Of a stretch of 64,000 nucleotides of DNA, positions 23,751-62,506 are shown piece by piece. The stretch's first letter is position 1, and every line of letters starts with the position of its first letter. A program made the position numbers and the translations under genes. The DNA lies in the NCBI GenBank assembly GCA_010094025.1, contig ML991860.1:33590-97589 (forward strand), given 5' to 3'. Under the pieces are notes generated by a model. The model saw only the letters and a program-made list of their open reading frames with translations. It was not told the origin of the DNA and did not search any database. This DNA comes from Viridothelium virens (taxonomy: Eukaryota > Ascomycota > Dothideomycetes > Trypetheliales > Trypetheliaceae).

Positions 23751-24590
23751 ATGGACGGAAAACTTACTCAATCGACTATCTCTTCCTCTAATGAAGAGCT
23801 CCATCTCGAAGAAATCCCCCCTTGCCACTTTCCGCAATACGGGAATGGTACCGGAGACCGCAAGGAGGCCTCAGTGGACGTGAACTTGGAGCAGCCAACG
23901 AGGCTGCATAGTCTGGTAAAAGCTGGCGAAGATGAGCTCCAAAGCACTTTGCGAACTGCTTGGGGATTACTCCTTCGCTGCTATACAGGGTTGGATGAAG
24001 TATGCTTTGGATATAGAGAGGTGCCCGGCGAGGCTGCGAACGGCGAACTTCTCGAAGAAGTAGGAAACGACCTCCTCACTATCCGTACCTTAAAGATGGT
24101 CTTTGAGCATGCAAACCGGCTCTCCGAATCCGTCGATATGGCTAAAAAGTCATATTCTCAAGAAATCCAGCGATTGAAACATAGCCGCGAACGGAGACGC
24201 GGACTTCAGTCGCTGCCAAAACGAAGACCTTTCAACACAACAATCGTCTTCGAAGAAAAATCCAGCAATCCGGGCGATCAGCAGGACTGTCAGTCTTTAT
24301 TGCGTGAAGCAGGGACGTCCTCCGGTGTAAGTAAAATCCTTGTAACGATGGAGAGGCAATTCTGATGATTCCACAGTGCGATCTTTGCCTGTATATTAGA
24401 GCCTCAGAGGCTTCTGTGAACATTAAACTAATGTGGTGGAGCTCCGAGATGTCTGTAGATCAGGCTGCGAACGTTGCGAGTACTTTCGATGTAGTGCTGA
24501 GTGCGATTTTGCTGAACTCAGAGACGAGGATCGCCAACTTGGACTATTTCAGTGAACTGAACAGGCAGGTCGTCTGCAGATGGAATCAGC
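23751..24590 (+). other. NRPS segment: N-terminal condensation-domain remnant
   Basis: Residues about 60-250 resemble only the C-terminal half of a condensation domain: a TAWGLLLRCYTGLDEVCFGY stretch matches the TAWALALRCYTGSDKVCFGY block of C1 in the same protein. The N-terminal half with the HHxxxDG catalytic motif is absent. The 50 bp intron falls inside this remnant. It may be a structural cap on A1. Confidence 0.8.
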
Positions 24591-27500
24591 ACGGCCCCGA
24601 GGAGGAATTGAAATGCATTCATGAGGTCATACAGAACCAGGTAACTTGTCGTCCCAACGCTGAAGCGGTTTGCGCATGGGATGGCTCTTTGACCTATGTC
24701 GAGCTCTCAACATACGCGTCCCGCTTAGCGCAATATCTGCTTGATATGGGTGCCAGTGCCAATACTTTTATTCCTCTGTGCTTTGACAAGTCCAAATGGA
24801 ATGTTGTCGCAATGCTCGCGGTCTTGAAGGCCGGAGCTGCATTTGTACCCTTTGACCCGGCCCATCCCAAGAATCGCTTGGAATCTCTTGCTCGCAAGGT
24901 CGGGGCTCAAACCCTTTTGTGCTCGGTAAAGCACACTGAAGCTCTCGCGGGGGTGGCAGAGAATATTGTTCCCGTTGATGCCAATCTGATGGAAAGGTTG
25001 TCAGCAGTGACCAATGCTCAAATATCTCGTGCGACGAGTCGGGACCGCGCATATCTTATATTTACCTCTGGAACGACCGGCGAACCCAAGGGCACGGTTG
25101 TATCCCATGCAGCATATTGCTCTAGCGCCAAGGCCCATGGACCAGCTATGCTAATCAATTCCGAATGTCGGGTGTTGCAGTTTGCCGCGCATACATTTGA
25201 CGCTAGTCTGGTTGAAATCCTAACAACGCTGATCGTGGGGGGTTGCGTCTGCATACCCAGCGAGGAGGCCCGTCTCAATAGCGTCGCAGAAACTATCGCT
25301 GCAATGCACGTGAATTGGGCAGTTCTTACACCATCCTTTATTGGATATCTTGAGCCCTCCACTGTGCCTAGTTTGAAGACACTGGTTTTGGCGGGTGAGG
25401 CCATGTCATCGGACCAGATCACCACATGGTCGAAGATCAAACTGGTCAATGGTTATGGGCCTAGTGAATGTGCGGTTTGCTCGCTCGTCAATTTCCCAGT
25501 TACTCACAAGTCTGGTCCCACAAATATTGGACGGGCAGTCGGGACCCGATGCTGGGTAGCGGACCAGGACGACCATAATAGACTAGTACCGGTCGGCTGT
25601 ACTGGAGAACTTCTTATCGAAGGGCCGACGCTTGCCGAAGGTTACCTCAACGATGAGAAAAAGACATCCGATTCTTTCATCAATGATCCTGCTTGGATAA
25701 CGCTCACGGGCACTTCGGGACTGTCAAGACGAATGTACAAAACCGGAGACTTGGTTCGACAAAATTGCTCCGACGGCACTTTCAACTTTGTAGGACGCAA
25801 AGATACCCAGGTCAAGGTCCATGGCCAGCGTGTAGAGCTTGGAGAAATCGAGCATCACTTGAATGTAGAGAAGGATATCCAGCATGGCGTCGTGCTCTTC
25901 CCAAAGTCGGGGTTCTGTTCCAAGCGCGTCGTTGCTGTTGCATCTCTTATTCCATCGCTTCTTTCCGAGTCAACTAAAGAAAGAAGATTACTTCAGCTTG
26001 TCGAAGGTCAAGAAAAAGAGATTGCAGATTCTTACGTCGTTCAACTCCGTCAGTCTTTGTCGCGTAACCTTCCCCATTACATGGTCCCGTCTATTATTCT
26101 GCTTGTCGAGTCTATTCCATTCCTTTCTTCTGGAAAACTTGATCGCAAGCGGATAGCGAAATGGGTTGAGAATATTGGAGCAGAGGCGTATCACCTTGCG
26201 ACTGGCATTACCAGACCTGAGGAGTCGTCGAAGAAAGACAAATCAAAGACCGAAGAAATCATCCAATCTGTTTGGGGCCACGTTCTCGACTTGCCAACGG
26301 AGTACATTAGCTTGGATCGACCCTTCTTGAGCTTTGGTGGTGACTCCATCTCGGCCATGCAGGTGATGCGGCAGTGCCAAAAAAAGGGCATCCGCCTTAC
26401 TGTTCAAGATGTAATTCGGAGCAAGTCAATCAGTCACTTAGCACTTTCCGCCAGAGAAGTCCAAGCTCCCTCTCAACGTATCGAGGCAGTGGAACAGACC
26501 TTCGACCTCTCTCCAATCCAAAAAATGTTCTTTGAGCTGCAGAACCAAGGGCAAGATCATTTCAATCAGAGTTTCTTCCTTCGCATAACCCGCCACGTCA
26601 CGCAGCAAGATCTTCGGAAGGCTGTTGAATCCATAATTGATTGTCATTCGATGTTACGAGCACGGTTTTCCAAAAACAGCAATAATGGAGTATGGCAGCA
26701 GCGGATTACCACAGATGTTGCCACCTCCTATCGTCTGAACGAACATTATTACGACAGGAAAGACCAGGTTACTTCAGAGATCGCCCGGACCCAGGCTTCA
26801 CTTGATCCAGTGCACGGGCCGGTTTTCGCTGTCGACCTTTTCAACATGTCCGGTGGAGACCAGCTCGTGTTCATGGTCGGCCATCATCTTGTAATCGATC
26901 TTGTGTCGTGGAGAATCATCCTCGAAGATATGGAAGAGTTGCTCACCAACCCTCAACGCTCTTCCATAGCTGATCCTCCATTGCCCTTCCAGACGTGGTG
27001 TCAATTGCAAGCTGAGCACTGCACATCATTCCAGGTCGATCAAGTCCTACCAAGCCATGATGTGCCGGTAGGAGACGGCGCATACTGGGGCATGGAACAT
27101 CAACCAAACGTTTATGGAGATGTCCTTACCGAAGGATTTGAAGTGGATGCCGCTACCACTTCGAAGTTGACGTCCAAAAGCCACGAGGCTCTGGGGACGG
27201 AAACTGTGGATCTCCTGCTGTCTGCATTGATTCATTCTTTCACTCAGACTTTCACCGATAGATTGGCGCCTCCTATATACAACGAAGGACATGGACGCGA
27301 GGTATGGGATTCCGAAATCGACCTATCCAAGACCGTTGGTTGGTTCACGGTGATGTATCCTGTTTGGGTCTCTTCAGTAGCTGCAGGCGACCTGGTGGAG
27401 ACGACTCGCCGAGTAAAAGACCTTCGCCGACAGATACTTGGAAATGGAAGGCCGTATTTCGCTAGCCGTCTTCTAACCTCGGCGGGTAGAGATCGCTTCA

Positions 27501-30500
27501 GCAGCCACTGGCCGCTGGAGATTACATTTAACTACCTTGGTCTGTACCAACAGCTCGAGCGTGAGGGTGGACTCTTGGTTCCTGCCGAGAAAATGGCCGG
27601 AGAAGCGCGTGGAGCTGGTGGAATTGCCGACGTCGGGCACAAAACGCCTCGCTTTGGTTTGTTCGAGATCTCCGCGGTCGTTGTACAGGACCGACTCAGG
27701 TTCTCTTTCACGTTCAATCGTCACATGAGCCGTCAGCAAGAGATAAGATCTTGGATACAGCGGTCCGAGGAAACGCTAGGCCTGTTAGCTAACGAGCTAT
27801 CCGAGATGAAGCCTGAGCGTACCTTGAGCGATTTCCCGCAACTGGCACTCACTTACGACCGTTTCCAAATGATGACTCAAAAATTGATACAGATCGGAGT
27901 ACCAGGCATTGACGCGGTCGAAGATGTATACCCTTGCTCTCAAATGCAGCAAGGACTATTACTTAGCTTGACTAAAGACTCCGCATACTATGGAGTTCAC
28001 GTCGTCCAAGAGGTCAAAACAAAGGGTTCTGCGCCTGTCAACAGCGAACGCTTAGTGGAAGCGTGGGAGCAGGTCGTGAACAGGCACGCTGCTCTCCGGA
28101 CCATTTTCGTGGAGAGCTTCAGCCAAGACAACGCCATGTACGACCAAATCGTTCTGAAGCGTATCGATCCTGATGTGATACGCACAACGCGTGAAAGCGG
28201 CGAGGAAGCAGTGAAATACCTCAGCGAGTTACAGGCTGCAAGCAACAACGATGGCCGACGCCCACCTCATAGATTTACCATCTGTGAGACAAGCTCCGGT
28301 CGCGTCTTCTGTAAGCTGGAGATTAGCCATACCATTATGGATGGGGCGTCTATGTCGATCATTTTCCAGGACCTTGGCCGAGCGTACGAAGGGCTTCTCT
28401 CTGGTCCAAAACCACTATATGGGGATTATATCGCATACCTTCGCAGTCAACCTCTAGACACGAGTTTAGAGTTTTGGCGCTCTTACCTCAAGAATGCGGA
28501 ACCCTGCCTTTTCCCGGTTCTGAATGAGGGCATCGTCAAAGAGAAGGAGCTCCATTCTATCCACATGACATTCGAGGAATTGCGGCGATTGCAAGAGGTC
28601 TGCGATGAGCACAATGTGACGCTCTCGAATGCAATCCATACCGCATGGGCTCTGGCACTACGCTGTTACACTGGATCAGACAAGGTTTGCTTTGGATATT
28701 TGACGTCCATCAGGGACGCGCCTGTCGACATGGCTGAAGAAGCGGTCGGGCCGTTCATTAATATGCTCGCTTGCAGCGTAGACATCTCATCGGATGTGCG
28801 GGTTGGCGATGTGGTTGACCAAGTCCAAACCGATTACGTAAACAGTTTACCCCATCGAGGAACGCCACTTGCCGAGGTTCAACACGCGCTTCGCTCTGAA
28901 CTAGCGAGTAGCGCGCTTTTCAACACCGCGCTTTCCTATCGTCGACTCCCACCTGCTGATCATGGCACCCATTCAGCGATATCCTTCCGCGAATGCGCGC
29001 CTATTTATGATCCGACAGAATACAATGTGTCTATCAATGTTGAAGTTGATGAAGAGGCAGCCTTCCTCACATTGGACCATTGGACGGATTGTTTGTCCGA
29101 TGGACAAGCTGCAAACGTCGCCGATACATTTCTGCAAGCATTGCACAATATTACCTACAATCGGTATGAAAAGGTAGGTCGGCTAAACTTTTTAGGTGAT
29201 AAATCAAAAGACCAGGTATGGAGCTGGAATAGTAGCATCCCGCAGAGAATTGACGAGTGTATCCCTGGGGTGCTCGAACGACTTGCTGTTTCGCAACCGA
29301 ATGCGCCTGCAGTGCACGGATGGGATGCCGAATTCACATTTGCAGATCTAGACCGACTTGCGGAGCGACTTGCTAGTTTTCTGGCCACCTTAGGAGTTGG
29401 ACCTGAGTCCTTGGTCCCTATCTGTTTTGATAAATCAGCATGGACCATTGTCACCATGGTCGCCATCTTGAAGGCTGGCGGAGCCTTTGTCCCGTTAGAC
29501 GCGACACATCCTAGGAGTGCCATTGAAAGACGAGTCCGCGACTGTCAAGCACGCCATGTTCTTGTTGCGCCAACTCGGGCCGAAATGTTTCAAGACCTTG
29601 TCCCACATGTAGTTCCAGTGGACCGGTCCTTCGTGGAAAATCTCCCAGAAGCCACTAAAAACACGCATCTCAAGGTGAGCTCCAACAGCTCTTGCTATGT
29701 GATTTATACCTCTGGTAGCACGGGTAACCCCAAGGGAGTGGTCATCGAGCATGGTGCTCTCGTCAGCAGCGTTCGTGCTCACGGTTCTGTCATGGGCTTT
29801 TGCGAAAGTTCCCGGGTCCTACAATTCGCCGCGTACACCTTCGACAACTGCCTGGAAGAAATCTTCACCACTCTCATGTTTGGAGGATGTGTTTGTGTAC
29901 CATCGGATCACGATCGTCTCAACAATCTGGCTGATGTTATCAATCGCTTTGAGGTCAATCTTATGGACATCACGCCGACAGTCGCGAACTTTCTACATCC
30001 TTCAGAAGTCCCTACAGTGAAAATCCTGGCATTTGGTGGGGAAGCTGTCAACGAGAAGGTCAGGGAAACCTGGGCCGGAAAAGTGACGTTGGGTGGAGTT
30101 TATGGTCCGACTGAGTGCTCGATCAACTGCATGTGGAACGGTGATATTGCCACCAGCGCCGATGCGACCAATATCGGCTATGCTATTGGTAGCGTCTCTT
30201 GGGTGGTCAATCCATCCGATCACAATCAACTCATGCCCATAGGATGCGCGGGTGAATTGCTGATTGAAGGCCCCATCCTTGCAAGAGGTTATTTCAATGA
30301 CCACGCCAAGACGTCCGCAGCTTTCATCGAAAACCCTTCTTGGGTGGCTAGAGAAATGGGAACGCAAAAAACGATCCGCCGTATGTATAAGACTGGTGAT
30401 CTTGTCAGGTACAATTCCGACGGGTCAGTGATCTATCTCGGGCGCAAAGATACCCAAGTGAAACTCAATGGCCAGCGTATCGAGGTAGGAGAGATTGAGC

Positions 30501-33500
30501 ATCATGTAAAAGCCAATCTTCCACCGGAAGCGCAATCCGCGGTTGAGTTGATGACGAGTACTGCTAATGGAAGGTCTACAAAGGCCCTCGCTACATTCTT
30601 CGGCCTACAATCCGATGGATCTGTTCCTTCAGCAGGTAGTGCAGACTTTATTCTTCCTATGACCGAATCTTTATCATCAACAGCGCGAGCCTTGGAATCT
30701 GCACTTGTCGAAGCCTTGCAGTCTTACATGATTCCGTCTGTCTACATTCCTGTCGCGCAGATGCCGATGACATCTTCGGGCAAGTTGGACCGCCGAACCC
30801 TCCGAACAGCTGCTGAGGCTCTTCCCGAGGAGAAAATTGCGGCCTACAGGCTTGCAGGGAAAAAGACTGGAAGAGCACCTGCCACTGAAGTAGAGTTACT
30901 GCTACAGAAGTTATATGCATCAGTGTTGAATATTCAGACCGATGCCATCGGTGTTGACGACGATTTCTTCCGTCTTGGAGGAGATTCCGTCAGTGCTATG
31001 CGACTTGTTACAGCTTCCCGCCGCGAAGGAATATTACTGTCCGTTGCTAGCATTTTTCAAAGACCAAAGCTTGTGGACATGGCTGCCCATGTCCTGACAA
31101 CATCCAACGGATTAAAACCAGATCTCGTGCAGCCAGCCATCAGGCCATTCGCTCTCATTAAGGGCGTTGACTCCATCGGCGACCTCATCGCGGATCTGGC
31201 ATCTCAGTGTCGCATCGAAAAGGATTGTATAGAAGACATCTATCCCTGTACTTCGATTCAACAAGGGCTCATAGCACTTTCAAACAAAGAGCCCGGAGCC
31301 TACGTTGCGCAAAGTGTTTACCGCCTGTCCTCCGACATTGATATGAACAGATTTAAGGAATCCTGGGAGGCTATCGTTGGTGAAGAGTCTGTCCTTCGTA
31401 CTCGAATCGTCTATACCAAAGCTTTGGGATTCTTACAAGTTGTTGTTCGTGAGCCGATCACATGGCAGGAAATTAATGATGGAGAAGAGCTTTCAGAACT
31501 GAATCGCCAAGTTCCCTTGTATAACGGGGGCTCCCTTAGCAACTACGCCATCGTCGGAGCAAACTCGAATGACAGGCATTTTGTCTGGACACTTCACCAC
31601 GCATTGTATGACGGGTGGAGCATGCCATTGATTCACGACAGAGTTCAAAAACTATACGAGAGTGGCCAACTGAGAGACGCAGCTCTTGCTTCGCCATATT
31701 CGAGATTCATCTCTTACCTTACCAATCTTGATCTTGATGAATGCGACGAGTTCTGGAGATCAAACCTGGCCAATTCTTCGTCTCATCAGTTCCCTCAGCT
31801 GCCCTATCCAGCTTATCAGGTGTCTGGCACCACCACGTTAAAGTACGCCGCTCGCATTCCCAGCGGAACTCGGACCGATATCATCATGTCATCAAAAATT
31901 CGGGCTGCGTGGGCTCTGGTCGTGGCAGCCTACTCAGGCTCGGATGATGTTGTGTTTGGAGAGACTGTGACCGGCCGCGATGCCCCTGTACCAGGTCTGG
32001 TCGATATGATTGGACCGACTCTTGCAACAATACCAAGGCGGTTAGAAGTCAATCGCAATCTGAGTATCCAAGACTACTTGACAGACGTCCAGCGGAAATC
32101 TGGTGAGGTATTGCCTTATCAACAGGCTGGGTTGCAACGTATCAAGAAATTAAGTCTCGATACTGAAATAGGCTGCGGATTTCAAAACTTGATTGCCATC
32201 AATCATGGCGGTCAGGATTGCGATGAAAACTTCTGGAATCCTCAAAATTCCGGCACGGTTGGGAACAATTTCTTTACGTACCCACTCACCCTGTCCTTTA
32301 CTATCAACGATTCGGCAGTCGACATTGAGGCGCACTATGATCAAAATATTCTCCCTATGTGGCGGCTTCAAAAGCTTCTACACTGTTTCGAACACGTTCT
32401 TGTGAAGTTGAATTCCACCGCAAGCAACGAGGACAAAGTTGGAACCGTCGGAATGATCAGTAATGAAGACCGCCAAATGATAACCCGTTGGAACAGGGCA
32501 CCATTGCAGAGATTGAACGAATGTGTCCACCTTAGAATTGAGCAACAAGTATCATCACTCCCGAAGGCTACGCCCGCTGTGTCTTCTTGGGATGCTGACT
32601 TTACATACCTGGCGCTCAATAACCAAGCAACTCGCCTCGCTCACTATCTGCACGAGAAAGGCGTTGGTCCGAATGTTTTTGTACCTCTTTGTTTTGAAAA
32701 ATCGGCATGGACAATCGTTGCAATGCTAGCCGTGCTGAAAGCTGGAGGTGCTTTTGTTCCGTTGGATCCTTCTCATCCCTTACCTCGGCTCTGTGGAATT
32801 ATCCAGGACACAGAAGCGAAATTGGTTTTGTGCTCGTCCCGATATAGAAGCCTCGCTGAGCAGATCGCTCCATCAGCTCTGACCATTGACCGAGAGACAT
32901 TGAGTCGGCTATCTATCAACAACACCACGCTCCCCACCTGTGCTAGCGATAGCCAGGCGTACGTCATCTTCACCTCCGGGACAACTGGCAAACCTAAAGG
33001 CACCATCGTGAGCCATGGAGCCTTCTGTACTGGTGCTATTGCTCACGGCTCAGCTATGGGTATGCAAGATACGTCGCGTGTTTTACAATTTGCCTCCTAC
33101 ACCTTCGATGCCAGTATAATGGAAATTTTGACCACGCTTATATTCGGCGGTTGCGTTTGTGTACCACATGAAGAAGATCGATTGAACAACATTACAAGCA
33201 TCATGAACAAGCTTGATGTCAACTGGGCTCTTTTGACTCCTTCGTTCGTCCAAAATATCAGTCCGTCCTTGGTCCCTAAACTTAAGACCCTAGTCTTAGG
33301 TGGCGAGGCCATGTCGCAAACTCACATTTCTACGTGGGCACAACACGTAAAATTGCTCAACGCCTATGGACCCAGCGAAACGGCTATAATCGCCGCAGTC
33401 AATCCTCACATGTCTCTAGAAACGAACCCTGCGAATATTGGTTGGGCTGTTGGAGGACGCTGCTGGATTGTAGACCGCCTAAATTCTGATCGCTTAGCAC

Positions 33501-36500
33501 CAATTGGATCACCTGGGGAGCTTTTGGTCGAAGGACCAATCCTTGCTGAAGGCTATTTGAAAGAGGAGCGGAAGACCGCTGATGCTTTCGTCCAGTCACC
33601 CCTGTGGACCCGTGACTGGGAACAAAACGGACAAACTGCAGGGAGACGCTTCTACAAAACGGGTGATCTTGTGCGTTACAGCGCAGATGGGACAATGATA
33701 TACCTTGGTCGAAAAGATACTCAAGTCAAGGTCCGCGGACAACGACTTGAACTTGGCGAGGCAGAATACCATCTCGCTACCGATCCATCTGTCAAGCATG
33801 GCGTAATAGTCATGCCGACGGAAGGTCCTTGTGCGAAACAGCTCACTGCAGTCACATCGCTGCAAACTTTGGCAACGTTGAAGTCATCCTTGAGCGAACT
33901 CAGTCTTGTTCATAAAGACGAAGCGCGGCAGCACTTACCGAGCATTCGCGAGCGACTTGGATCGCACCTCCCTGCGTACATGGTGCCGACGAAATGGATA
34001 TTTGTACAAGAAATTCCACTTCTACCTTCGGGCAAACTAGACCGGAGGCAAGTCACAAAATTCGTTGAAACCATGAACGAAGCAACCCACCATCAAATCT
34101 GCGACATCGAAATTGAGCAGGAAGACAAAGCTTGGCAAGCGACTGGTGTTGAGAAACAGCTACAAAACATCTTTAGTTACGTGCTCAACCTTCCCACTGA
34201 ACAGATTGGACCCCATGCATCCTTTTTGCATCTTGGTGGAGACTCGATTACAGCTATGCAAGTCATGGCCCAATGCAGGGCCGAAAATCTCGGTGTTACA
34301 GTTCAAGACATCATTCAAAGCAAATCAATCGCGGACCTCGCATCACGTGTAACACTGCCGAAGAAGCAGATCGAAGCAGGAGAAGACATTGATGTGCTGT
34401 TTGAACTTTCTCCGATCCAGCAACTATACTTCGAGTGCATGAGCAACGAGCCGAACCACTTCAACCAAAGTGTCTTGCTCAGATTAACTCGTCATAAGCA
34501 ATCTCAGGATATCGTGCGTGCCATCGAATCCATAGCTAACTCTCACTCTATGCTCCGGGCGCGCTTCTTCAAAACGGATCTAGGTGAATGGAAACAAAAG
34601 ATAACCCAAGATGTCGCAGGCTCATATCGCTTCCATATACACGACAACGACGCTCAGATAGCGACTATAGTGGAAGAGAGTCAAATGAGCCTCAACGTCC
34701 AGACTGGCCCGGTCTTTGCTGTCGACATGTTCAAATCCGATGGAAATGGGAGCTATATCCTTTCAATCGTTACGCATCACCTTGTCGTTGACGTTGTGTC
34801 ATGGCGCATCATCCTTCAGGATTTGGAAGACCTCCTGTTAACCAATAAATTGACTGCTCAGAACTCTTTGACCTTCCAGGCATGGTGTCGACTGCAACTT
34901 GAGCATACTAGATCCAAGCAGACCAGCAGGCTTTTGACGGGTGTGGATATGCCAGCTCCAGCTCTGGATTATTGGGGAATGACCAATATCAGCAATACTC
35001 ATGGTGAGAGTGTTGATACAGGCTTTGAGCTGAATGTCAAGACTACGTCGCTCTTGCTGGGTGCTTGCAACGAAGCCCTTCGGACGGACATTGTCGACAT
35101 TTGCCTTACGGCGATGTTGCAGTCGTTTCACGGCGTCTTCTCCGATCGACCAAGACTTCCAGCAATCTTCAACGAAGGCCATGGACGTGAACCTTGGGAT
35201 TCTCAAATCGACCTATCCCGAACAGTTGGCTGGTTCACGACAATTACTCCCATATACTTACCAAGCATATCGGCGGAACATTTTGACACTATCAGCATAC
35301 TACGTTGGATCAAAGACACTCGGAGGCGTGAACCCGATAAGGGACGAGAATATTTCGCACATCGTTTCCTGTCAGAAGATGGCAGGCAAAAATTCCACGG
35401 GCACTGGCCAATGGAAATCAGCTTCAATTATCTTGGGCAATTGCAACAATTGGAGAGGAAAGAAGCGCTGCTGCAGCCTCTGGAAAGCCTGTCTGGGCAG
35501 TCAGTAAACACGATGTCTGATATCGGCAAAGAAGTTCCCCGTTTCGCGCTGATCGAGACGTCAGCTGCAGTGAACCAAGGTAGCCTCAAGGTCACCTTCA
35601 GCTACAATAAGAACATGAAGCGTCAGCAACAAATTGAGCAATGGGTCGCTGAGTACCAAAAGACGCTTGAAAGAATCGTCGAGCAATTGGTACAATCGAA
35701 GATGGAACCAACTCTCGATGATTTTCCGTTACTGCCGCTTGCTTACGATGGTCTCACTAACCTTGCTCAAAAGCTGCCTCAGATGGGCTTATCATCCTTT
35801 GAGGAGCTGGAAGATGCCTATCCATGCTCGGCAATGCAGCAAGGAATTCTATTTAGCCAGCTCAAGAATCCGGCCACCTACAATTATCGATCTATTATCG
35901 AGGTGCGGCCAACGCGAAAGGAGCAAAGGATTGAGACTGGTCGCCTGGAAGAGGCTTGGCAAGCCGTCGTTCAACGACATGCGTCCTTGAGGACCATATT
36001 CATTAACAACGTTTCGCAGCAAGGTTTGATGGACCAAGCGGTAGTCAAAAAATGGACTGCCAGGGTAGATCGATTGGAAGAATGCGATGATGCAGAGATT
36101 GTCCAGAAGCTTGAAGCACGTCCTCCCATCGACTTCAACAATTCCAAGCCGCCTCATTTCTTCACGATAGCAAAAACGTCCTCGAACCGAGTGTTTTGCA
36201 TGCTTGACATAAGTCATGCCATTTCCGATGGGAGCTCTATGCCGATACTACTTCGCGATCTTGCTCAAGCATATACTGGGCAACCGGCACTTAACCTCAA
36301 AGGTCCACTCTTTGGCCAATACATCTCCCACATCCAATCAGGCTCTCAGCAAGCCGATATGGATTATTGGAAGTCATACCTTGCGGATATTGAGCCTTGT
36401 TACTTCCCTAACCTTGGGAACTCCACCAAAGAAACGAGAACACTCAACACTTTGGTTTTGCCGTTGTCAAGAGCGTCTCAGTTACCTACCTTCTGTGCAA

Positions 36501-39500
36501 AGCATGGTCTTACAGTGCCCACTGTGTTGCAATTTGTGTGGGCTCTGATTCTTCGGTGCTACACCAACTCGAACGAGATCTGCTTCGGATACCTAGTCTC
36601 TGGACGGGATGCTCCGGTGAGTGGTATTCAAGATGCCGTAGGTGCATTCATCAACATTCTCGTGTGCCGGATAAACCTTCTTGAGAATGTTCAACTTGGA
36701 GATGCACTGGAGCAGATTCAAACCGATGTCGTCCAAAGCATGGCCCATCAGCACAGTTCCCTTGCAGATGTGCAACACGAGCTTCGTCTTTCAGGTGTTT
36801 CGCTCTTCAATACGGCTTTCACCTACCAGAAGCGATCAAGTTCGAACATGGTATCAACTGATGCGCTTTCCTTCAATGTCCTCGACGCTCATGATCCAAG
36901 TGAATACAGCATTACAATCAACATCGAGGCCTTCGAATCAGGCGTGGAAGTCCACTTGAACTATTGGTCCGACATTCTGTCCGAGACGCAGGCGTCACAC
37001 ATGGCCAGCACTTACGAACACGTCCTAAATAGCATCATGGAAAGTCCGAAACTAAGTCTGCCAATTGGTGAGCTCGATCACTTCAGTGAGAAGAGCAGGA
37101 AACAAGTGTCGGAGTGGAACGAGAAACTTCCGGAAACCGTTGAAAAATGCGTGCACAAGGCAATTGAAGAGCAATCGCGCATCCAGCAAATTTCCAAGCA
37201 TGCTATTTTTGCGTGGGATGGAAACCTTACGTACAAGCAGCTTGATCGACTGGCAACACGATTAGCCACTCGCCTTGTTACGCTTGGTGTCCTCCGAGGG
37301 ACTTATGTTCCTATTTGCTTCGAGAAGTCTCTGTGGCCGATTGTGGCAATGCTCGCGATAATGAAGGCTGGTGGTGCATTCGTGCCTTTAGATCCCACCC
37401 ATCCCGTTAGCCGATGGAAGCACATCATCCAAAACGTTGAAGCTAAATTGGTGCTTTGCTCGTCACAACACCAGGCCAAGCTTTCCGAGGCCGCGAAAAA
37501 GACGTTTGTTGTCGACAAGACGTCGATCAGCCAATGCACGGACTCTCCACGCAGCCTCTCTCTGCAAGAGCCATCACCTGAAGACGCTGCGTATATCATC
37601 TTCACTTCAGGCACAACTGGTTTGCCAAAAGGTACCATTATTGAGCATGCCCAATTTTGTACTAGCGCAACTGAACACGCTCGAGCGATGTTTATGCGAT
37701 CGGATTCTCGGGTCTTCCAGTTCGCTAACTACACATTTGATGCAAGCATCATGGAAATCTTATCAACCCTGATTGCTGGTGGATGTGTTTGTGTGCCGAA
37801 CGAACAAGAGCGCATGAGTGATATCCCCGGCGCCATCCAACGTATGGATGTTAACTGGACATTGCTGACACCATCTGTGGCCAAGATTCTGGATCCAGAC
37901 AGTGTACCAAGTTTGAAGGTACTTGTCACTGGTGGTGAAGCAATGTCTGCCGGACACATTGCCAGGTGGCGAGGCAAGGCCGCAATCATCAACGCCTACG
38001 GACCAAGTGAGACTTCAGTCATCGCCGCAACAAGTACCAAGATCGATGAGAACGGCGTTGAAGTCAACGGAGATACCAGTACTATCGGTGGTGCTGTGGG
38101 AGGTCGCAACTGGGTTGTAGACCCACGCAACTGCAATCGACTTACTCCAGTTGGCGGCGTTGGCGAGCTTCTAGTTGAAGGACGCCACGTGGCTCGAGGG
38201 TATCTCAAGAATGAGCAAAAGACTGCCGAAGCCTTCGTCACAGATCCGTCGTGGCGCAAGAACAAAACCTTTGAAGATCTCGATCATCGCAAAGAACGCA
38301 TGTATCGGACTGGCGATCTCGTCCGGTACAACTCCGACGGCACATTGAGTTACATATCAAGAAAGGATACTCAAGTGAAATTCAACGGTCAGCGCATCGA
38401 GCTCGGTGAAATCGAGCATCATGTACGGACAAATCTTTCGGAGGAGATCCAATCTGCCGTCGAACTAGTCGTACCCCCTGGCCGGAATGGGACTAAAGCC
38501 CTCTGTGTCTTCCTCTCCATTCCGGAGGGCAAGGCCGAAACTGAGCCCCAAATAGCATCTCCCATCGATGAACTGTTACTCCCGATGTCAGATCAGATGC
38601 AGGCTCGATGCAAGGAACTTGAAAGCGCCCTCACGAAAGCGCTGCCAGCATACATGGTCCCGACGATATTCATCCCGCTTACAAAGATGCCATGGACAAG
38701 TTCTGGTAAGATCGACCGACCCCGACTGCGACACGTTGTCGAAAAGCTGCCAAGAGAGGAGATATTGCCATACAAACTAGCAGGTTTTGTCAAAAAGCGA
38801 GCTCCAGTTACAGCTATGGAGAAGAAGCTGGCCAAGTTATGGGAGAATGTCTTGAACGCGCCATCCAGTTCCTTTGGCCTCGACGATAACTTTTTCAAGC
38901 TCGGCGGTGACTCAATTGCGGCGATGCGGCTCATCAACGCTGCCTATGCTGAACAAATTACCTTGACAGTCCTTGCCATACTCGAAAAACCAAAACTTTC
39001 AGACATGGCTGGGGCTTGCACTATCTTTGAGGGTGACGGTCCCAAAGAGTCTGCGCCATTCAGCTTGATCACCACCGATGAAGGTCTCTCTGAGATCCGC
39101 GACGAATTAGCAGGTGCATGTGAATTTGAGAAGGCCGTAATACAGGACGCCTATCCTTGCAGTTCACTTCAAGAAGGCCTCATCACGTTATCCATCAAAC
39201 AGCCGGGCTCCTATGCCGCTCGCAATGCTTTCCAACTTGGTGCTGAGGTCGATCTTGATCGATTTAAAGCAGCATGGCAAAAGACTGTCGACGATATTGA
39301 TATCCTCAGGACTCGCATCGTTCATATGAAATCGTCTGCCTTTCTTCAAGTTGTGCTCCGTGAGCAGCCAATTACTTGGCATGCTGCAGAGAACTTATCT
39401 GAATTGAACAAGGAGATGATGATTTTACCAGAACACAATGGATCCTCGCTCACCCGGTACACGATAGTCCAAAGCACAAACTCCAACGAGCGTTACTTCG

Positions 39501-42500
39501 TTTGGGGTATTCACCATGCTCTATATGACGGATGGAGCATGCCTATGGTCCTCGAACGATTCAAGTCCAACTACAGGCAAGGCGTCGCGAAGATTCCAAA
39601 GGTTCCATATGCAAGGTTCATCAAATACCTTCTACAAAACAAACCGCAGACATCAGATACTTTCTGGAAATCAAAATTAGCAGGGTCCTCACCCCTTCAC
39701 TTTCCACAGGCTCCAGTCGCAGAGTCACAACAAACTCGTACAACACCATCACTTACCTATGATGCAAATATTTCTCGGACAATCATAGGATCAGAAATAA
39801 CGATGCCAACGATCATCAGAGCTGCTTGGGCCGCACTATTGGGGGCCTACACCGGATCTGAGGACGTCGTTTTCGGTCAGACTCTTGCCGGACGAGATAT
39901 ATCTGTTCCGGGAGTCACCGACATTATCGGCCCAACTCTGACGACTGTACCGACAAGGATTCAGGTAGACCATACCTTGACTGTGATGCAATATTTGCAA
40001 GCTGTTCAGCATATGACTGCGGATACTATACCCCACCAACATGCCGGCCTGCAACACATTAAACGACTCAATTCGGATACTGCAGCAGCCTGTAACTTCC
40101 AGAATCTTCTCGTCATTCAACCAGCAGAGGAAAATTCCTCAGAAGATGAGCTCTGGACTCCTTTGGATGAGGGAGCGGGGATGAACTTCTTTACCTACCC
40201 GCTCATCCTTGAATGCAAGTTTGCGAATCGCAAGGTTGAGATTGTGGTCCATCATGACGAACATACAATTTCCGCACATGAAGTTCAAAGACTACTCTCT
40301 CAGTTTGACATGGTTCTCAACCAGCTCAATGACGCGTCGAACAACAAGGACAAGAAACTGAGCGAGCTCCAGATGTTCAGCATGCAAGATTCGGAGGCTC
40401 TACGGGCTTTCAATCGGACAAATCAACTGTCTGGCATATCGGCTAAGATCATATCTAACTTCAAGGAAACAGCTGCATCAGGGGAACTGCAGAATTTGGG
40501 GATGGGCATGGCATGGATCGTGGATCCGTTAGATCACGACCGCCTTGCGCCTCTGGGCGCAGTGGGGGAGTTGGTCTTAGAAGGAGCGAACTTGGAGAAG
40601 ACATACATGACTGTTCTTCAAGATGCGCAGACGACTTATATCGAAAATCCCACCTGGACTGCAGCATTCGAGGAAGGAAAATCCTCACGGCGGATGCTCA
40701 AGACTGGCTACCTAGCAAACTACGATTCCCGCGGCGTCTTGGAACTCCGAGGAAAGAAAGAGAACCAAGTGAAGCTCAATGGCCAGCGCTTAGAGCTGAC
40801 CGCAATCGAGCGCCTTCTCAACATGCATTCCCACGTTCACGACTCAATCGTACTCCAGCCTCTCGTAGGCCAATTCAGAGAGAATCTCGTCGCTGTCTTG
40901 TCGTTGAAGGGCACGGCCCAAGAAGATGCGGCCTTATCAGTAAAGCCATTGCAGCTCGTATCAGGAGGATCGAGGGAGGCCATGCGCGCACAACTGTCTG
41001 AAGTACAAACTGAGCTGTCAGCACAATTGTCACAGTCTTTCATGCCGAACAAATGGGTGGTAGTACAGGCACTTCCTCTGACGGCGTCAGGGGGACCTGA
41101 TAGGGAACGTGTTGCCGACTGGATTACCAAACTTGATGAGGAGACGCACACACAAATCCGTGATCAGGAGAGAATCGAAGAGCCAGAGGATACCACCGAA
41201 CCTTCAACTGCATTCAAGAGAATCATGCGAGATATTTATTCCCGTGTACTCAATATTCCAGTTGAGGAAATTAGCTTTGAGCAGTCCTTCCTGAATCTTG
41301 GCGGTGACTCAATCACAGCGATGCAAGTCATGGCACATGCTCGAAAAGAAAAGATCAGTCTCTCTTTACATGAGATTATCCGAAGCCAGTCGATCAACGA
41401 ACTCGAACAAAACGCAGATCTACACACACTGCAGCAAGCTGACATGGGCGGTCAAGAGGAGAAGCTCGATACCGTTTTCGAACTTTCTCCCATCCAGCAA
41501 CTCTATTTCCAGTCCGTTAAACAACCGAAGCTCGGTGATCGTTTCAATCAGAGCTATTTGGTCCGCCTTTCCAGGGACATCCCATCTGAAGATATTGAAA
41601 ATGCGGTCAAAGCCATTGTCGGTCAGCACTCGATGCTTCGAGCACGATTCACCAAAGACGCATCGGGTGTTTGGAAGCAACGCATAACTGGAGACGTCAC
41701 TTCTTCCTACCGTTATAAAGTTTATGAGGTCGAGAAGCTCCGTGATATTAATCCCATGGTTTCAGACAGCCAAAGCTGTCTCGATGTTCAAAATGGGCCC
41801 CTGTTCGCAGCAGACTTCTTCCGAATCAATGGGCAAGAGAGCGTGGTATTCCTCGTTGCTCACCATCTCGTCGTGGATATTGTGTCCTGGAATAATATCA
41901 TGCAGGACTTTGAGGAGCTGCTTGATACCGGTGCGCTGATGGGTGACAAGCCACTGCCATTCCAGCATTGGGCATCCATGCAAGCCGACAACGCCCAAGA
42001 GAGAAATGCAAGCGGCAATAGTCGGAAAGTCTTGCCTTACGATATTTCTCCCGCCAATCTAGATTACTGGGGCTTAGCTGGAAAACCTAACAAGTACAGT
42101 GATGTGGACCACGAATCCTTCATGATCCCCGAGGACATATCCCAACTCGCGCTCGACGAGTGTCACAAGCCTTTCAAGACAGACATGGTAGATCTATTCT
42201 TAGCAGTCCTTGTCCATTCGTTCAACCGTGTATTCAATGACAGAGAGGCACCAACTATTTTCAACGAAGGTCACGGCCGTGAACCTTGGGATTCCTCCAT
42301 TGACATTTCGAGGACAGTGGGATGGTTCACAGCCATGGCTCCTTTCCACGTCGCAGTCGATAAAGATAGGAACGATATCCTGGATACTGTAAAGCGAATG
42401 AAAGATGTTCGTCGCAAGGTGCCAGAAAATGGTCGGGCCTATTTTGCTCATCGTTTCCTCACATTAGACGGCCGTAAACGATTCAAGGACCATATGCCAA

Positions 42501-45500
42501 TGGAAATGACGTTCAATTACCTCGGTCGCATGCAATCGGCACAGCGCGACGATTCTTTGTTGCAAAAGATCGACTTTGATACAGATGATGAGTCTTTCAG
42601 GATGGTCGCCGATATGAACGACAACGCACCCAGATTCGCTCTCTTCGAGGTCTCGGCTTATGTTGCTACGAAACAAATTCAGTTCACCGTCAACTACAAC
42701 CGATGTGTAAAGCATCAAAACGCAATACAACGATGGTTTTCGGAATGCCAACGAACTTTCGCCGAAGCTGTCACTCGTCTAGTGGAGCTACCATCGCAGC
42801 CCACGCTTAGCGATTATCCTACCATGCCGATCGGTTATGATAAGCTGGAGAAGTTAACAAGGGAGATCTTCCCCAAGTATGGCCTCACTCACCACGATAA
42901 GGTCGAGAATGTCTACCCATGTTCTCCTATGCAAGAGGGATTGTTGCTCGCTCAATTTGTTGATCCAAGCCGATATCTCTGCCACACGGAAGTTGAGGTC
43001 AAGCCCACTCGATTCGGAGAAGGCCAAGTCAATGCTCAGAAACTCGTGAGCACCTGGCAAAAGGTCGTTGATCGCCATGCGGCTCTGAGAACGATCTTCA
43101 TCGACAGTGTCTATCAAGGGGATGCGTTCAACCAAATCGTTGTTAAGCAAGCGAACAGTGGGGCGATCTTTATCGAGTGTGAAGAGAGCGAAGTGTTGGA
43201 CCGCATGGATGCTGTCAGTCTCCGAGAAACTAACTTGAAGAACAAGCCCCCGCTCCCTCATCAGCTGACAGTCTGCCTCACACCAAATGGCAAAGTCTTC
43301 CTCAAGATCGAAATCAACCACTGTGTCATTGATGGCGAATCGGCTTTCATTCTCATGCGCGACCTGGGACTGGCGTACGAGGATAAATTGCCAGAAGGTC
43401 GCGGTCCGTTATATAGCGATTACATCGCGTACATCAAAGGCCAGCCACCGAGCGCGGATGTCAGATTTTGGAGAACATATCTGAAAGGAGTTCAGCCATG
43501 TTACTTCCCTGCGCTGGTTGACAAACCACCAGCTGAAAAGACTCTTGGCTCAGTCTCATTGAAGTTCGACCGGTTTGATGAGCTTCAGAGCCTCTGCAAA
43601 ACTCTGAAAGTAACTCTATCTAACGTCATGCTTGTAGCGTGGGCCTTGGTCTTACGAGATTACGTCCGCACGGATGACATCTGCTTTGGGTACCTGACTT
43701 CAGGTCGTGATGCCCCGGTCAGCAGCATTCAAGACGCTATTGGTGCATATATCAATATGCTCGTGTCTCGCATTAAGTTTACAGCTACCTCGTCCCTCGA
43801 AGAGATGTTCCAGACGACACAGGATGACTATCATCAAAGTCTGCCGTACCAGCATTGTTCTCTTGCTCAGATGCAACACGATATGGAGTACACTGGCAAT
43901 ATGTTTAATACTGCTGTTTCAATCCAGAACACTGGTGCTGAAGGAGAAGCTGCAGAATGTTCTCTTGATTTCATACCTCTGAGAGCCCATGATCCTAGCG
44001 AGGTAAGTTTTGACAACATTAGAGACGGTCAAGAGCGAAGACTAATATATAATCCATAGTATGGCGTAACTCTCAATATCAGGACGACAAGGCACGACGA
44101 AGGCGCCGTGCTTAGATATTGGAACGACCATTTGTCGCCTCAGCAGGCCGAAGAAGTCATGGACAAGCTTAGTCGAGTTCTTACCAACACGATTACGGAA
44201 CCAAAACAATCCATCATGGAGCTGGACAAAGCCAATAAAGCTCTCCAAAAGGGAGCAAGTCCAGAGGCTTCTGCACCAGAACCCGCGACCTTTGACGTCA
44301 ATCACGGCATTGCCCAGCAGCTCGTTACCCAACAAGTCTACCCTGATATGGTTAAGCAGCTTGTTTCTGAATGTGTCCACCGCGACATGTTTAAGCAACT
44401 CGTTTCCGAAACCGTGCAACAGGTTATTGGCGAACTTTTCAAGAATGGAACTCTTGTAGCATCCGATACCAACAGGATCCAGAACGGCAGCTCGATGAAC
44501 CTTATTAGTCCCAAAGCTAATGAGGTGGACAACAGCAAGTCAATCAGAGATCGTGCAGCAACAGACCAGGATTCCGACGAAAATGTCGCTCTTTCGAGAA
44601 AGCAAGGAAAGGCACTCTCCGCAGAAGAAATGGACAAGAAACTCTTAACCTTATGGAGCGAAGCGCTTGACATCCCAAAGAACGAGATTGGAAGTGAAGG
44701 AAGTTTCTTCGAGTTGGGCGGTGACTCGCTCGTCGCTATGAAAATGGTAGGATCCGCTCTTGAGAACGGTATCAACTTGACTGTCGCGGATGTGTTCTTA
44801 TACCCCGCTTTCAACGACATGCTTGCAGTCATTCGCAGATCTATGAGTACGGAAGTGCCCCAGGCTGGTGAAAACGGCAACGGAGAGGAAGCGAAACAAG
44901 AGCTGATCTTCGACCCATTGGATGAAGTGGCATACGAGCCTTTCTCACTTCTCAAGAACAGCAATATTGAGGCATTCCTCCAAGAGCATGTCTGCTCTCA
45001 ACTTCATGTCTTCAGAGGAGGTATTGTAGACGTGCTTCCAGTCACCGATTATCAAGCATTGGCCATTAGTGGCTCGATGCTAGAGTCGAGGTGGATGCTT
45101 AACTACTTCTCCTTCGAAGGTCGTGGGAAACTTGACTTAGGAAGACTCAAGCGTTGTATCTTCCAGGTCATCCAAGAATATCCGATCCTCCGTACCGTGT
45201 TCATTGCACACCAGGACCAGTTACTGCAAGTCGTCCTACGCAAACTTGAGCCGGACTTTTCTGTCGTGGAGACTGCGCAAGACGTCGACGAATACGTCCG
45301 CTCATGGAGGGAAGAAGATCGCAGTTCCACCCTCCGACTTGGCGAGTCTTACCTCAAAGTGATGGTAGTGCAGAAGAAGTACAGCAGTCAGCATTCTATT
45401 GTGCTGCGACTCTCACACGCGCAGTATGACGGGGTGTCACTGCCTATCATTCTAGAGTCACTTCAAGCCGCATACAACGGGCAGCCGCTCGTCTCTGGGA

Positions 45501-46762
45501 CCGACTTCTCGAATTACGTCAGTTCTGCGATGGATGATCCATCCGGCGATACCCACGACCATTGGAGAAATTTACTCAAGGGCTCCTCAATGACTTCCAT
45601 CGTGTCCCGTGACAGACCGAACTTTGACATGTTCATGACGGAGAGTACAACTTTCAAGAAGACTATCAATTTACATTCCCTATCGGCCAAGAGTATCACA
45701 CCTGCAACCATTCTCAAAGCGGCGTGGGCATTAGTGTTAACCCAAACGACAGCCACCTCGGATGTTACTTTCGGGCATATAGTGAACGGTCGCAACGCCG
45801 TAGTGCCAGGCCTAGCACATGTGGTAGGCCCATGTCTGAACATTGTCCCTGTCCGAACCAAGCTCCAGCTTGGCTGGACGGCTCTCGATCTTCTGCACGA
45901 TATCCAGGGACAACAGGTCGCCAACATGCCGCATGAGATGCTTGGATTCCGCGAAATTATCAAGCGCTGCACTGATTGGCCCGATTGCACAACCTTCTCT
46001 TCGATTATCCAGCATCAGAACCTCGAAGCTTCTGAATCTTACCGTTTCGGTGATGTTGACTATCACGTCAGTGCTGTCGGCGCACCAGGCGAAATGGCCG
46101 ATATCAATATTGTGTCGGTTCCGCAGAAGGACAATAATGTTGAGATCAATCTTTCTTTCGTCCGGGACGGCGGTATCACCTCCGCCTTTGCGACAAGGCT
46201 CCTTGACTCGCTATGCACTATGGCTACGGCCATTTCAGCGGAACCCGATATGGCACTCCCTTCGCCATCGCCGCGATCGCGCATGTCGCAACAAACAGCA
46301 GATGAGATAGGATTTGCTTCATCCACCAGCTTGGTCGCCCCGTCAGAGAGACTGACTGACCACGAGATTCTTCAGCTGTCCGACGTGATTACTCACGCTT
46401 GGCAGCAAATCCTTCCAAAGTGGAAAGGTAGACCTCTACCTCTAAGCCCAGAGGACTCATTCTTCGAGCTAGGTGGCGACGTTATAGGTCTCGCACAAGT
46501 CTTTGCGATCCTCCAAAAGGATGGCTTTGAGCTTCGTCTTGAGGATATGATCCGCCATCCAGTCTTTTCCGAGCATGTCGCACTCCTCTCAAAATTGAAG
46601 GCCCCAGTCAGGATCATTGATTCGTCAAGTTCGGAAGAGGACTTAAAATCGGTAACTCGTGCAGAGGTTCAAGCTATTCGGGGGCAGCCGAAATCCTGGA
46701 GGAAATCTATTCATCGGGTGAAGAGTTTTATGAACCGTGGCAAGACTGATAAGGCGTTTTAA
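23751..46762 (+). CDS. Giant non-ribosomal peptide synthetase, about 7,634 residues
   Basis: Three exons, 23751-24326, 24377-44002 and 44060-46762, joined by 50 and 57 bp introns at phase 0. Domain order from motifs: C remnant, A1-T1-E1, C1-A2-T2, C2-A3-T3-E2, C3-A4-T4, C4-(A remnant)-T5-E3, C5-linker-T6, C6-T7. ATP-binding TSG(T/S)TG motifs start at residues 422, 1970, 3058 and 4602. Carrier serines are at 849, 2396, 3482, 5038, 5837 and 6957; T7 has Val at 7542. Condensation motifs (H-x3-DG) start near 2599, 4138, 5238, 6506 and 7186, plus C1 at base 28324; epimerase motifs (HH-x3-D) at 1028, 3659 and 6021. There is no thioesterase; the terminal C domain may release or cyclise the product, as in other fungal NRPSs. 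The layout recalls Pes1/NPS4-type synthetases (from memory, untested). ATG 23751 opens the frame; nothing like an N-terminal C half is seen upstream. Product unknown. Confidence 0.95.
24600..27840 (+). other. NRPS module 1: A1-T1-E1
   Basis: A1 has TSGTTGEPKG, NGYGPSE, YKTGDL and SGKLDRK. My reading of the ten-residue pocket code is D-A-V-V-V-A-G-V-C-K, mostly small and hydrophobic. T1 carries FGGDSIS. E1 has HHLVIDLVSW, EGHGRE, VGWFT and NYLG, all expected of an active epimerase, so residue 1 is probably delivered in the D form. Confidence 0.88.
27870..31110 (+). other. NRPS module 2: C1-A2-T2
   Basis: C1 follows an epimerase and has SHTIMDG. A2 has TSGSTGNPKG, VYGPTEC, YKTGDL and SGKLDRR; its pocket code reads D-N-E-D-A-G-V-I-N-K, with acidic residues at positions 239 and 278, unlike the other three. 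T2 has LGGDSVS. No epimerase follows, so an L residue is expected; a basic side chain is a reasonable guess. Confidence 0.88.
31130..35720 (+). other. NRPS module 3: C2-A3-T3-E2
   Basis: C2 has the full HHALYDG motif. A3 has TSGTTGKPKG, NAYGPSE, YKTGDL and SGKLDRR; pocket code D-A-M-L-V-G-A-I-I-K, hydrophobic. T3 has LGGDSIT. E2 has HHLVVDVVSW and EGHGRE. Confidence 0.88.
35740..39030 (+). other. NRPS module 4: C3-A4-T4
   Basis: C3, after an epimerase, has SHAISDG. A4 has TSGTTGLPKG, NAYGPSE, YRTGDL and SGKIDRP; its pocket code D-A-M-L-V-G-A-V-I-K differs from A3 at one conservative position, so both probably take similar hydrophobic residues. T4 has LGGDSIA. Confidence 0.88.
39050..42800 (+). 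other. NRPS module 5: C4, truncated A, T5, E3
   Basis: C4 has HHALYDG. The following A region (about 40390-41130) jumps from the pre-A linker straight to the WIVDPLDHDRLAP segment near motif A6: motifs A1-A5 are missing. What remains is degenerate: KTGYL for YKTGDL, GKKENQVKLNGQ for GRKDTQVKLNGQ, and SGGPDRE for SGKLDRR, losing the catalytic Asp and Lys. T5 (LGGDSIT) and E3 (HHLVVDIVSW, EGHGRE) look intact. Confidence 0.88.
42820..44860 (+). other. NRPS module 6: C5, linker, T6 without an A domain
   Basis: C5 after E3 has NHCVIDG; its end is split by the second intron. About 125 residues of linker follow, including a triple 13-residue repeat (44315-44431), then T6 with LGGDSLV. No adenylation motif is present between C5 and T6. 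Confidence 0.85.
44315..44431 (+). repeat. 39 bp (13-residue) triple repeat in the NRPS linker
   Basis: Units 44315-44353, 44354-44392 and 44393-44431 encode QQLVTQQVYPDMV, KQLVSECVHRDMF and KQLVSETVQQVIG. The pattern of Leu/Val and Met/Ile suggests an amphipathic helix in the linker between C5 and T6. Confidence 0.75.
44920..46762 (+). other. NRPS terminus: C6, degenerate T7, basic tail
   Basis: C6 has SHAQYDG and could act as the terminal condensation (release or cyclisation) domain. T7 matches a carrier domain through SFFELGGD but the next residue is Val, not Ser. The protein ends with a Ser/Glu patch and a Lys/Arg-rich tail. Confidence 0.82.
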
Positions 46763-62442: not shown

Positions 62443-62498
62443 ACTGTACCTTACAGGAAGTAGAGCCCTTGTCCTCTGAATCCAGGGGTGGGATTGTT

Positions 62499-62506
62499 CA
62501 TATATA
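62499..62506 (-). promoter_or_regulatory. TATA-like box of the GH67 gene
   Basis: The run atatatac on the plus strand reads gtatatat on the minus strand, about 57-64 bp before the GH67 ATG, with a short leader. Confidence 0.5.

What the first reader, a model, noticed from the sequence alone, without database searches (positions are those of the whole stretch)
39050..42800. NRPS module 5 has a gutted A domain but an intact T and E
Seen directly: after C4 the sequence passes from the inter-domain linker to the A6 region, omitting core motifs A1-A5, and the remaining A7, A8 and A10 motifs have lost catalytic residues (KTGYL, GKKENQ, SGGPDRE). Yet T5 keeps its serine and E3 keeps all epimerase motifs. 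T5 therefore must be charged by another A domain of the same protein, by a stand-alone enzyme, or act as a pass-through station that epimerises an already bound peptide. The kept T-E pair argues against simple decay.
Basis: partly seen in the sequence, partly recalled or inferred. Interest (0 to 1): 0.75.

Follow-up and report, generated by a model that had tools for sequence, protein, structure and literature searches.

The report
Fungal peptide synthetase with gutted loader
One loading domain of a large fungal peptide-making enzyme has lost its catalytic half while its neighbours stayed intact, so another loading domain probably does its work, an arrangement already known from other fungal synthetases.

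Summary
In a 7,634-residue fungal NRPS (modelled exons 23751-24326, 24377-44002, 44060-46762) the fifth A domain is a 242-residue remnant. Between its 'FN' linker and the 'NLG' before motif A6 lie 26 residues, against 312-320 in A1-A4, and A7, A8 and A10 have lost catalytic residues. T5, E3 and C5 keep their motifs. No frame or gap in 38700-42800 supplies the missing part.

New here: the enzyme is a threefold tandem of A-T-E-C-A-T-C. The remnant groups with A1 and A3, the epimerising modules (support 99/97). It has 2.5 times the unique changes of these paralogues; T5 and C5 have 1.1 times, E3 1.4 times. In the third repeat A5 is gutted and A6 absent.

Most likely, intact A domains of the same chain (A4 or A3, whose codes differ at one place) charge T5 and T6. 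E3 epimerises, C5 accepts the D residue, and the terminal C domain cyclises a D-L-D-L-D-L hexapeptide like fusahexin.

It is a known kind: SidD/NPS6 carry an inactive A domain lacking about 290 N-terminal residues, and SidD A1 loads T2. SidC and HcpA have A-less modules. Loading is untested here, and no orthologue could be compared.

The parts
23751..46762 (+). NRPS gene; modelled exons 23751-24326, 24377-44002, 44060-46762; 7,634 aa
   Evidence: open frames; GTAAGT...CAG 24327-24376 and GTAAGT...TAG 44003-44059; joined frame has one stop, at the end. The introns are inferred, without transcript data.
24575..26170 (+). A1, complete
29219..30817 (+). A2, complete
32483..34069 (+). A3, complete; code read as DAMLVGAIIK (positions recalled)
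37109..38743 (+). A4, complete; code read as DAMLVGAVIK (positions recalled)
39047..40402 (+). C4, condensation domain (HHALYDG), closest to C2 (45.1% identity); limits approximate
40403..41128 (+). A5 remnant (dA5), 242 aa: linker, then A6-A10 without catalytic residues
40415..40492 (+). 26 codons standing where 312-320 residues (motifs A1-A5) stand in A1-A4
41228..41407 (+). T5, carrier domain with intact Ser (41309-41311)
41432..42829 (+). E3, epimerisation domain, motifs intact; limits approximate
42827..44240 (+). C5, closest to C1 and C3, which follow E1 and E2; interrupted by intron 44003-44059; limits approximate
44639..44827 (+). T6, intact Ser, no A domain before it
45029..46249 (+). 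C6, terminal condensation domain (SHAQYDG), presumed cyclising
46337..46591 (+). T7, terminal carrier-like domain with LGGDV (no Ser); limits approximate

Best explanation
The gene encodes a working fungal NRPS of the fusahexin/NPS4/Pes1-like kind, built from three tandem A-T-E-C-A-T-C repeats. In the third repeat the catalytic core of A5 (about 290 N-terminal residues) was deleted, its remaining catalytic residues drifted away, and A6 is missing altogether. T5 and T6 are charged between modules by complete A domains of the same chain: A4 (next door) or A3 (whose carrier T3 is most like T5) by preference. C4 then joins the tetrapeptide on T4 to the amino acid on T5, E3 turns that residue to D, C5 passes it to the amino acid on T6, and C6 releases a cyclic hexapeptide of D-L-D-L-D-L pattern. 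Shown by sequence: the deletion, the lost residues, the intact motifs of T5/E3/C5/T6, the repeat structure, the faster change of the remnant. Inferred: intermodular loading, activity of E3, cyclisation, the product, and which A domain is the donor.
For: Repeat structure: T1/T3/T5, T2/T4/T6, E1/E2/E3, C1/C3/C5 and C2/C4 are closest to one another in the identity matrices, T6 by a small margin. dA5 falls with A1 and A3 (99/97) inside the clade of the window's own A domains (100/99) in a tree of 11 rows. Rates: dA5 50 unique changes versus 24 and 16 (p=0.003 and 3e-5); T5 and C5 not faster; A remnant against T+E+C pooled p=0.004 (sites taken as independent). C5 is 38-39% identical to C1/C3 but 20% to C2/C4, so it is of the type that follows an E domain, as expected if T5 delivers a D residue. 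Four complete A domains and dA5 are all the A-like stretches that tblastn with A1-A4 finds in the window, for six Ser-bearing T domains. [quoted passage not shown] HcpA with an A-less C4-PCP4, for which the authors propose a trans-acting A4 or, alternatively, A3 loading two carriers (PMC4041764); F. graminearum NRPS4, five modules for six residues D-Ala, L-Leu, D-allo-Thr, L-Pro, D-Leu, L-Leu (PMC10967133), the D/L pattern that E1-E3 predict here.
Against: No loading assay, transcript or product. No orthologue could be compared, so rates were judged only among paralogous repeats of one protein. E3 has more unique changes than E1 and E2 (63 versus 49 and 39; p=0.22 and 0.02), which could mean mild relaxation. 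The review assigns residues 5 and 6 of fusahexin to a reusable module 5, whereas here A5 is dead, so the Fusarium scheme does not carry over as it stands. T7 lacks its Ser, so not every part of the C-terminus is functional.
Confidence: 0.75

Rival explanations
1. A stand-alone adenylating enzyme or an A domain of another NRPS of this genome charges T5 in trans.
For: The genome has other NRPS A domains and AMP-binding matches (73 candidate places, 14 scored). The CmnI module of capreomycin synthesis is charged by the A1 domain of CmnA (PMC12400406, start of abstract in listing).
Against: No stretch similar to A1-A4 outside the NRPS in the 64 kb window. The intramolecular precedents SidD and SidC need no partner protein. 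T6 also lacks an A domain, so the same or another helper would have to serve it too. The rest of the genome was not examined for a helper.
Confidence: 0.1
2. Module 5 is skipped or is a pass-through station: the peptide moves to T5 without a new residue, or T4 hands directly to a later module.
For: Its A domain is dead, and module skipping is known in NRPSs in general (recalled, no call).
Against: C4 is complete, with HHALYDG, and needs an aminoacyl acceptor; T5 and C5 have changed no faster than their paralogues and E3 1.4 times as much; C5 is of the type that follows E domains.
Confidence: 0.07
3. The third repeat, or the whole gene, is decaying, and T5-E3-C5 are merely younger in their decay.
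For: A5 gutted, A6 absent, T7 without Ser; E3 1.4 times the unique changes of E1/E2.
Against: No stop within the modelled coding sequence; motifs of E3, T5, C5, T6 and C6 kept; T5 and C5 rates normal, while the remnant's long branch (2.12 versus 0.56 and 0.71) suggests an old loss after which the rest was held.
Confidence: 0.08

Closest known systems
SidD/NPS6 module 2 (fusarinine and related siderophore synthetases), dA-T-C
   Same: A domain truncated at the N-terminus by about 290 residues, followed by a T domain; in SidD A1 was shown to load T2 (PMC10192304: introduction read, passages; NPS6 dA-T-C in PMC2823734 passages). NPS6 and NPS4 are in the same broad EAS subfamily.
   Different: Here the dA stands before T-E-C in the fifth module of a long synthetase with three tandem repeats, not in a two-module siderophore enzyme. 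Loading is untested, and no SidD/NPS6 sequence was compared.
Fusarium graminearum NRPS4 (fusahexin) and ChNPS4
   Same: Five modules for six residues; D-L-D-L-D-L product matches the E1/E2/E3 positions; ABC transporter in the cluster (PMC10967133 passages). ChNPS4 is listed with four A domains (PMC3554632 passage).
   Different: The review describes module 5 of NRPS4 as serially reused for D-Leu and L-Leu, i.e. as active; here A5 cannot be. No NRPS4/NPS4 sequence was on hand for comparison.
HcpA (fungisporin synthetase) and Pes1-like synthetases
   Same: HcpA A1-T-E-C-A4-A2-T-C-A3-T-E-C-T-C-T: like a two-repeat version of the same plan, with an A-less T6-like carrier and a C-T end (PMC4041764 passages; PMC6262359 table). 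A. hancockii Pes1-like A-T-C-A-T-E-C-T-C-T (PMC5381763 table).
   Different: HcpA has an extra displaced A domain proposed as trans-acting and a complete A domain before its last T-E. Here there are three repeats, no displaced A domain, and the A before the last T-E is gutted.
SidC (ferricrocin synthetase)
   Same: Modules without their own A domain; A3 loads T4 and was hypothesised to load T5 (PMC10192304).
   Different: SidC modules 4 and 5 lack A domains; the description read mentions no E domain there.

Membership tests
dA-type inactive A domain (as in SidD/NPS6 module 2) | about 290 N-terminal residues (A core) missing | tested here: met
   286-294 residues fewer between linker and NIG than in A1-A4
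dA-type inactive A domain (as in SidD/NPS6 module 2) | A domain catalytically inactive, followed by a T domain with its Ser | tested here: met
   by sequence only: A7 Asp, A8 Arg/Asp and A10 Lys changed; T5 LGGDS
dA-type inactive A domain (as in SidD/NPS6 module 2) | T of the dA module loaded by another A domain of the protein | not testable with these tools
   needs purified domains and mass spectrometry
SidD/NPS6 siderophore synthetase | A-T-C followed by dA-T-C | tested here: not met
   four A, one dA, seven T-like, three E domains
NRPS4/NPS4-type cyclic hexapeptide synthetase (fusahexin) | six T domains with Ser, E after T1, T3 and T5, and a terminal C domain | tested here: met
   T1-T6 with Ser, E1-E3, C6 SHAQYDG. 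The feature is deduced from the fusahexin structure and module count, not from an NRPS4 sequence.
NRPS4/NPS4-type cyclic hexapeptide synthetase (fusahexin) | sequence orthology to FgNRPS4/ChNPS4 | not testable with these tools
   no fungal sequence collection was available; only PDB chains and prokaryote contigs were searched
NRPS4/NPS4-type cyclic hexapeptide synthetase (fusahexin) | cluster of glycoside hydrolase, NRPS, ABC transporter and MFS transporter | tested here: inconclusive
   ABC transporter pieces next to the NRPS, divergent (15570-20323; three pieces match ABC families, a fourth matches TMD0 below its cut-off); GH67 gene 13 kb downstream; no MFS match among the 17 non-NRPS frames scanned, which are not all frames of the window
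HcpA (fungisporin) type | A-less T before the terminal C-T | tested here: met
   T6-C6-T7; no A remnant in the 180 residues from 44108
HcpA (fungisporin) type | displaced A domain adjacent to another A | tested here: not met
   tblastn with A1-A4 finds only A1-A4 and dA5, each in its own module

The most novel reading that the evidence does not exclude
The remnant is not debris but a pseudo-A domain kept as a docking platform: without catalysis it holds T5 within reach of A3 or A4 and preserves the C-A-T geometry. This would explain why the half from A6 on and the QVKxNGQRxEL loop were kept when the core was cut out, and why a dA with a missing part of nearly the same length is found in SidD/NPS6.
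Probability: 0.2. Interest if true: 0.5.

Novelty: new member of a known kind. Interest (0 to 1): 0.32.

Why it matters
It adds a clear case to the rule that, in fungal NRPSs, the number of A domains does not give the number of residues: here four A domains for six carrier domains. That the missing part has nearly the same length as in SidD/NPS6 suggests that the remaining half may have a use. That can be tested, and it bears on product prediction from genomes and on re-engineering of synthetases.

Tried and rejected
Assembly gap, missed exon or frameshift as the source of the missing motifs: rejected (no N, no A core in six frames of 38700-42800; 78 bases at the junction).

A remnant of A6 before T6: none found; blastp of the five A C-terminal halves against 180 residues from 44108 gave one 11-residue hit at E=0.51.

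A SidD/NPS6 homologue in the same genome, to compare cut points: the C22 synthetase appears, by eye, to have two full-length A domains; the C20 place matches along most of an A domain and the C14 place in broken pieces, neither with C-domain matches. None was recognised as SidD/NPS6; the search was not exhaustive.

First tree attempt held only the five window rows, because my script missed the other A domains; repeated with 11 rows: the five of the window, four from the C55 synthetase (one search shows five places there) and two from C21. A domains without the searched A7 pattern, with a stop, or too close to a locus end were dropped by the filter; those of C22, C4, C20 and C14 were not put in.

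Rates: with three paralogues the count for repeat 3 also holds any branch shared before the split of the other two; T, E and C of the same repeat serve as the control for that.

Structure: AlphaFold model of dA5-T5 from five rows is weak (mean pLDDT 63.9, pTM 0.46; blocks 141-180 and 201-250 at 73-84, 181-200 at 48-59). Of 946 Foldseek matches at E<=10 the 50 listed are NRPS modules and other adenylating enzymes (best 9up2, E=3.0e-16, TMq 0.39; 1amu E=1.7e-11). This only says that the remnant resembles the C-terminal part of an A domain. The second aligner was not available.

Relatives outside the genome: one genome-contig scan (prokaryotes) gave 25 pattern matches, none a relative. The viral collection was not scanned.

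Literature: the fusahexin discovery paper is not held, so NRPS4 is described from a review. Ten searches; I saw passages of 15 papers, one section of one of them in full, and listings of the rest. In these I saw no dA-T-E module described for this family; subscription journals are mostly absent from the library, so this says little. Names mislead: 'NPS4' of Clonostachys rosea is an eleven-module peptaibol-type enzyme (PMC7513725) and 'Nps4' of Cladosporium fulvum is mono/bimodular (PMC3895014). Another truncated A domain is reported for module 1 of Fusarium NRPS5 (PMC6563249). Code positions are recalled from PheA numbering and applied by anchors; no substrate was assigned.
Full report
What was checked. 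The window lies in a 30.7 Mb genome of 175 contigs. Its size, the short GT-AG introns and the type of synthetase point to a filamentous ascomycete (inference; no marker gene was looked at). The frame 24365-44059 is open for 6,564 codons. Short canonical introns at 24327-24376 and 44003-44059 join it to a first exon from 23751 and a last exon to 46762, giving a protein of 7,634 residues with one stop, at its end. The intron calls rest on sequence alone.

Anatomy. Motif positions, Pfam and alignments give: a partial C-like start, A1-T1-E1-C1-A2-T2-C2-A3-T3-E2-C3-A4-T4-C4-dA5-T5-E3-C5-T6-C6-T7. The partial C-like start is my reading by eye; Pfam found nothing in that exon.

The identity matrices show a threefold tandem of A-T-E-C-A-T-C. 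T1/T3/T5 share 37-45%, T2/T4 48%, T6 33-35% with T2/T4, E1/E2/E3 41-47%, C1/C3/C5 38-40%, C2/C4 45%, while comparisons across kinds lie between 12 and 33%. T6 stands out least (35% with T2, 27% with T3), and C6 is not close to any (at most 23%). In the third repeat the first A is gutted and the second is absent: the linker before T6 shows no A remnant.

The gutted A domain. Between the 'WN' linker and the 'NIG' segment A1-A4 have 312-320 residues; dA5 has 26. As aligned, of the 147 columns invariant in A1-A4, 84 are deleted, 25 changed and 38 kept. Changed ones include the A7 Asp, the A8 Arg and Asp, and the A10 Lys; that these are the catalytic residues is general knowledge of A domains. Kept ones include GEL in A6 and QVK..GQR.E in A8. 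Pfam AMP-binding does not see the remnant, yet it is clearly homologous to A domains. No frame or gap in 38700-42800 can supply the missing part.

Origin and rate. In a tree of 11 C-terminal halves of A domains from this genome, the five of this protein form one clade (100/99), within which A1, A3 and dA5 group (99/97). The dA5 branch is 2.12 against 0.56 and 0.71; the tool warns that the place of such a long row is unsure. Counting sites where one of three paralogues differs from the two that agree: A remnant 50 (A1 24, A3 16), T5 12 (T1 14, T3 7), E3 63 (E1 49, E2 39), C5 64 (C1 58, C3 57). The excess in dA5 is significant against both paralogues (p=0.003 and 3e-5) and against T, E and C pooled (p=0.004); T5 and C5 show no excess; E3 shows a small one, significant against E2 only (p=0.02; against E1 p=0.22). 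The tests take sites as independent. So the A domain lost its constraint and its T, E and C neighbours did not, or hardly so. Whether the remnant itself is still under selection cannot be told without orthologues.

How it most likely works. Six T domains carry the Ser; four A domains are complete. T5 and T6 must be charged from elsewhere. In SidD, where module 2 has an A domain lacking about 290 N-terminal residues, A1 loads both T1 and T2; in SidC, A3 loads T4 and was hypothesised to load T5, two modules downstream (PMC10192304, introduction read, passages). A bacterial A-less module, CmnI, uses the A domain of another module (PMC12400406, start of abstract in listing). By that logic A4 is the neighbour of T5, and A3 is the natural partner of a T3-like carrier: T5 is 45% identical to T3. 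Their ten-residue codes, read with recalled positions, are DAMLVGAIIK and DAMLVGAVIK, close in form to the DAMFVGGVFK that PMC4041764 gives for the valine domain A3 of HcpA and the DAMTVGGVFK of its phenylalanine domain A2; I assign no substrate. C5 belongs with C1 and C3, which follow E domains, so T5 is expected to hand over a D residue. C6 would cyclise. The predicted D-L-D-L-D-L hexapeptide has the configuration of fusahexin: D-Ala, L-Leu, D-allo-Thr, L-Pro, D-Leu, L-Leu (PMC10967133 passages; PMC12340964 start of abstract in listing, and passages).

Known or new. [quoted passage not shown] NPS6 has A-T-C followed by dA-T-C (PMC2823734 passages). HcpA looks like the same plan in two repeats with an A-less carrier before the terminal C-T, and a Pes1-like enzyme of A. 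hancockii ends T-E-C-T-C-T. A table in PMC3554632 lists four A domains for ChNPS4; it lists one for ChNPS6, which also has a dA, so that table probably omits gutted domains and ChNPS4 may share this anatomy. For F. graminearum NRPS4 the review assigns residues 5 and 6 to a reusable module 5, which implies a working A5 there. The finding is therefore a new member of a known kind. The combination of dA with T-E in this family was not seen described in the listings and passages that I saw (searches).

Surroundings. Divergent from the NRPS lie pieces of an ABC transporter gene (15570-20323), as the fusahexin cluster also has an ABC transporter. A P450 exon (48696-49457) and a GH67 gene (59935-62565) lie downstream. 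These fit, but do not prove, kinship with the NRPS4 cluster.

Limits. No fungal sequence collection was available, so orthology, age of the loss and selection on the remnant remain open. The structure model is weak and its matches add little. Loading, epimerisation and product are inferred.

Noticed in passing
46469-46483: The terminal carrier-like domain T7 after the last C domain reads LGGDV: the phosphopantetheine Ser is replaced by Val, so it cannot be a normal carrier.
   Followed up: partly
44108-44640: No trace of an A domain between C5 and T6; by eye the linker holds a repeated element (MVKQLVSECVHRDMFKQLVSETVQQ).
   Followed up: partly
23751-24326: The gene seems to start with the second half of a C-like domain before A1 (by eye; no Pfam match).
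   Followed up: partly
15570-20323: Pieces of a multi-exon ABC transporter gene on the minus strand, divergent from the NRPS.
   Followed up: partly
48696-49457: P450 exon next to the NRPS; a possible tailoring enzyme, not listed in the fusahexin cluster.
   Followed up: no
L018 and L019 (C55 of the genome): A second large NRPS with an open frame of 5,427 aa and five places that match the A remnant.
   Followed up: no
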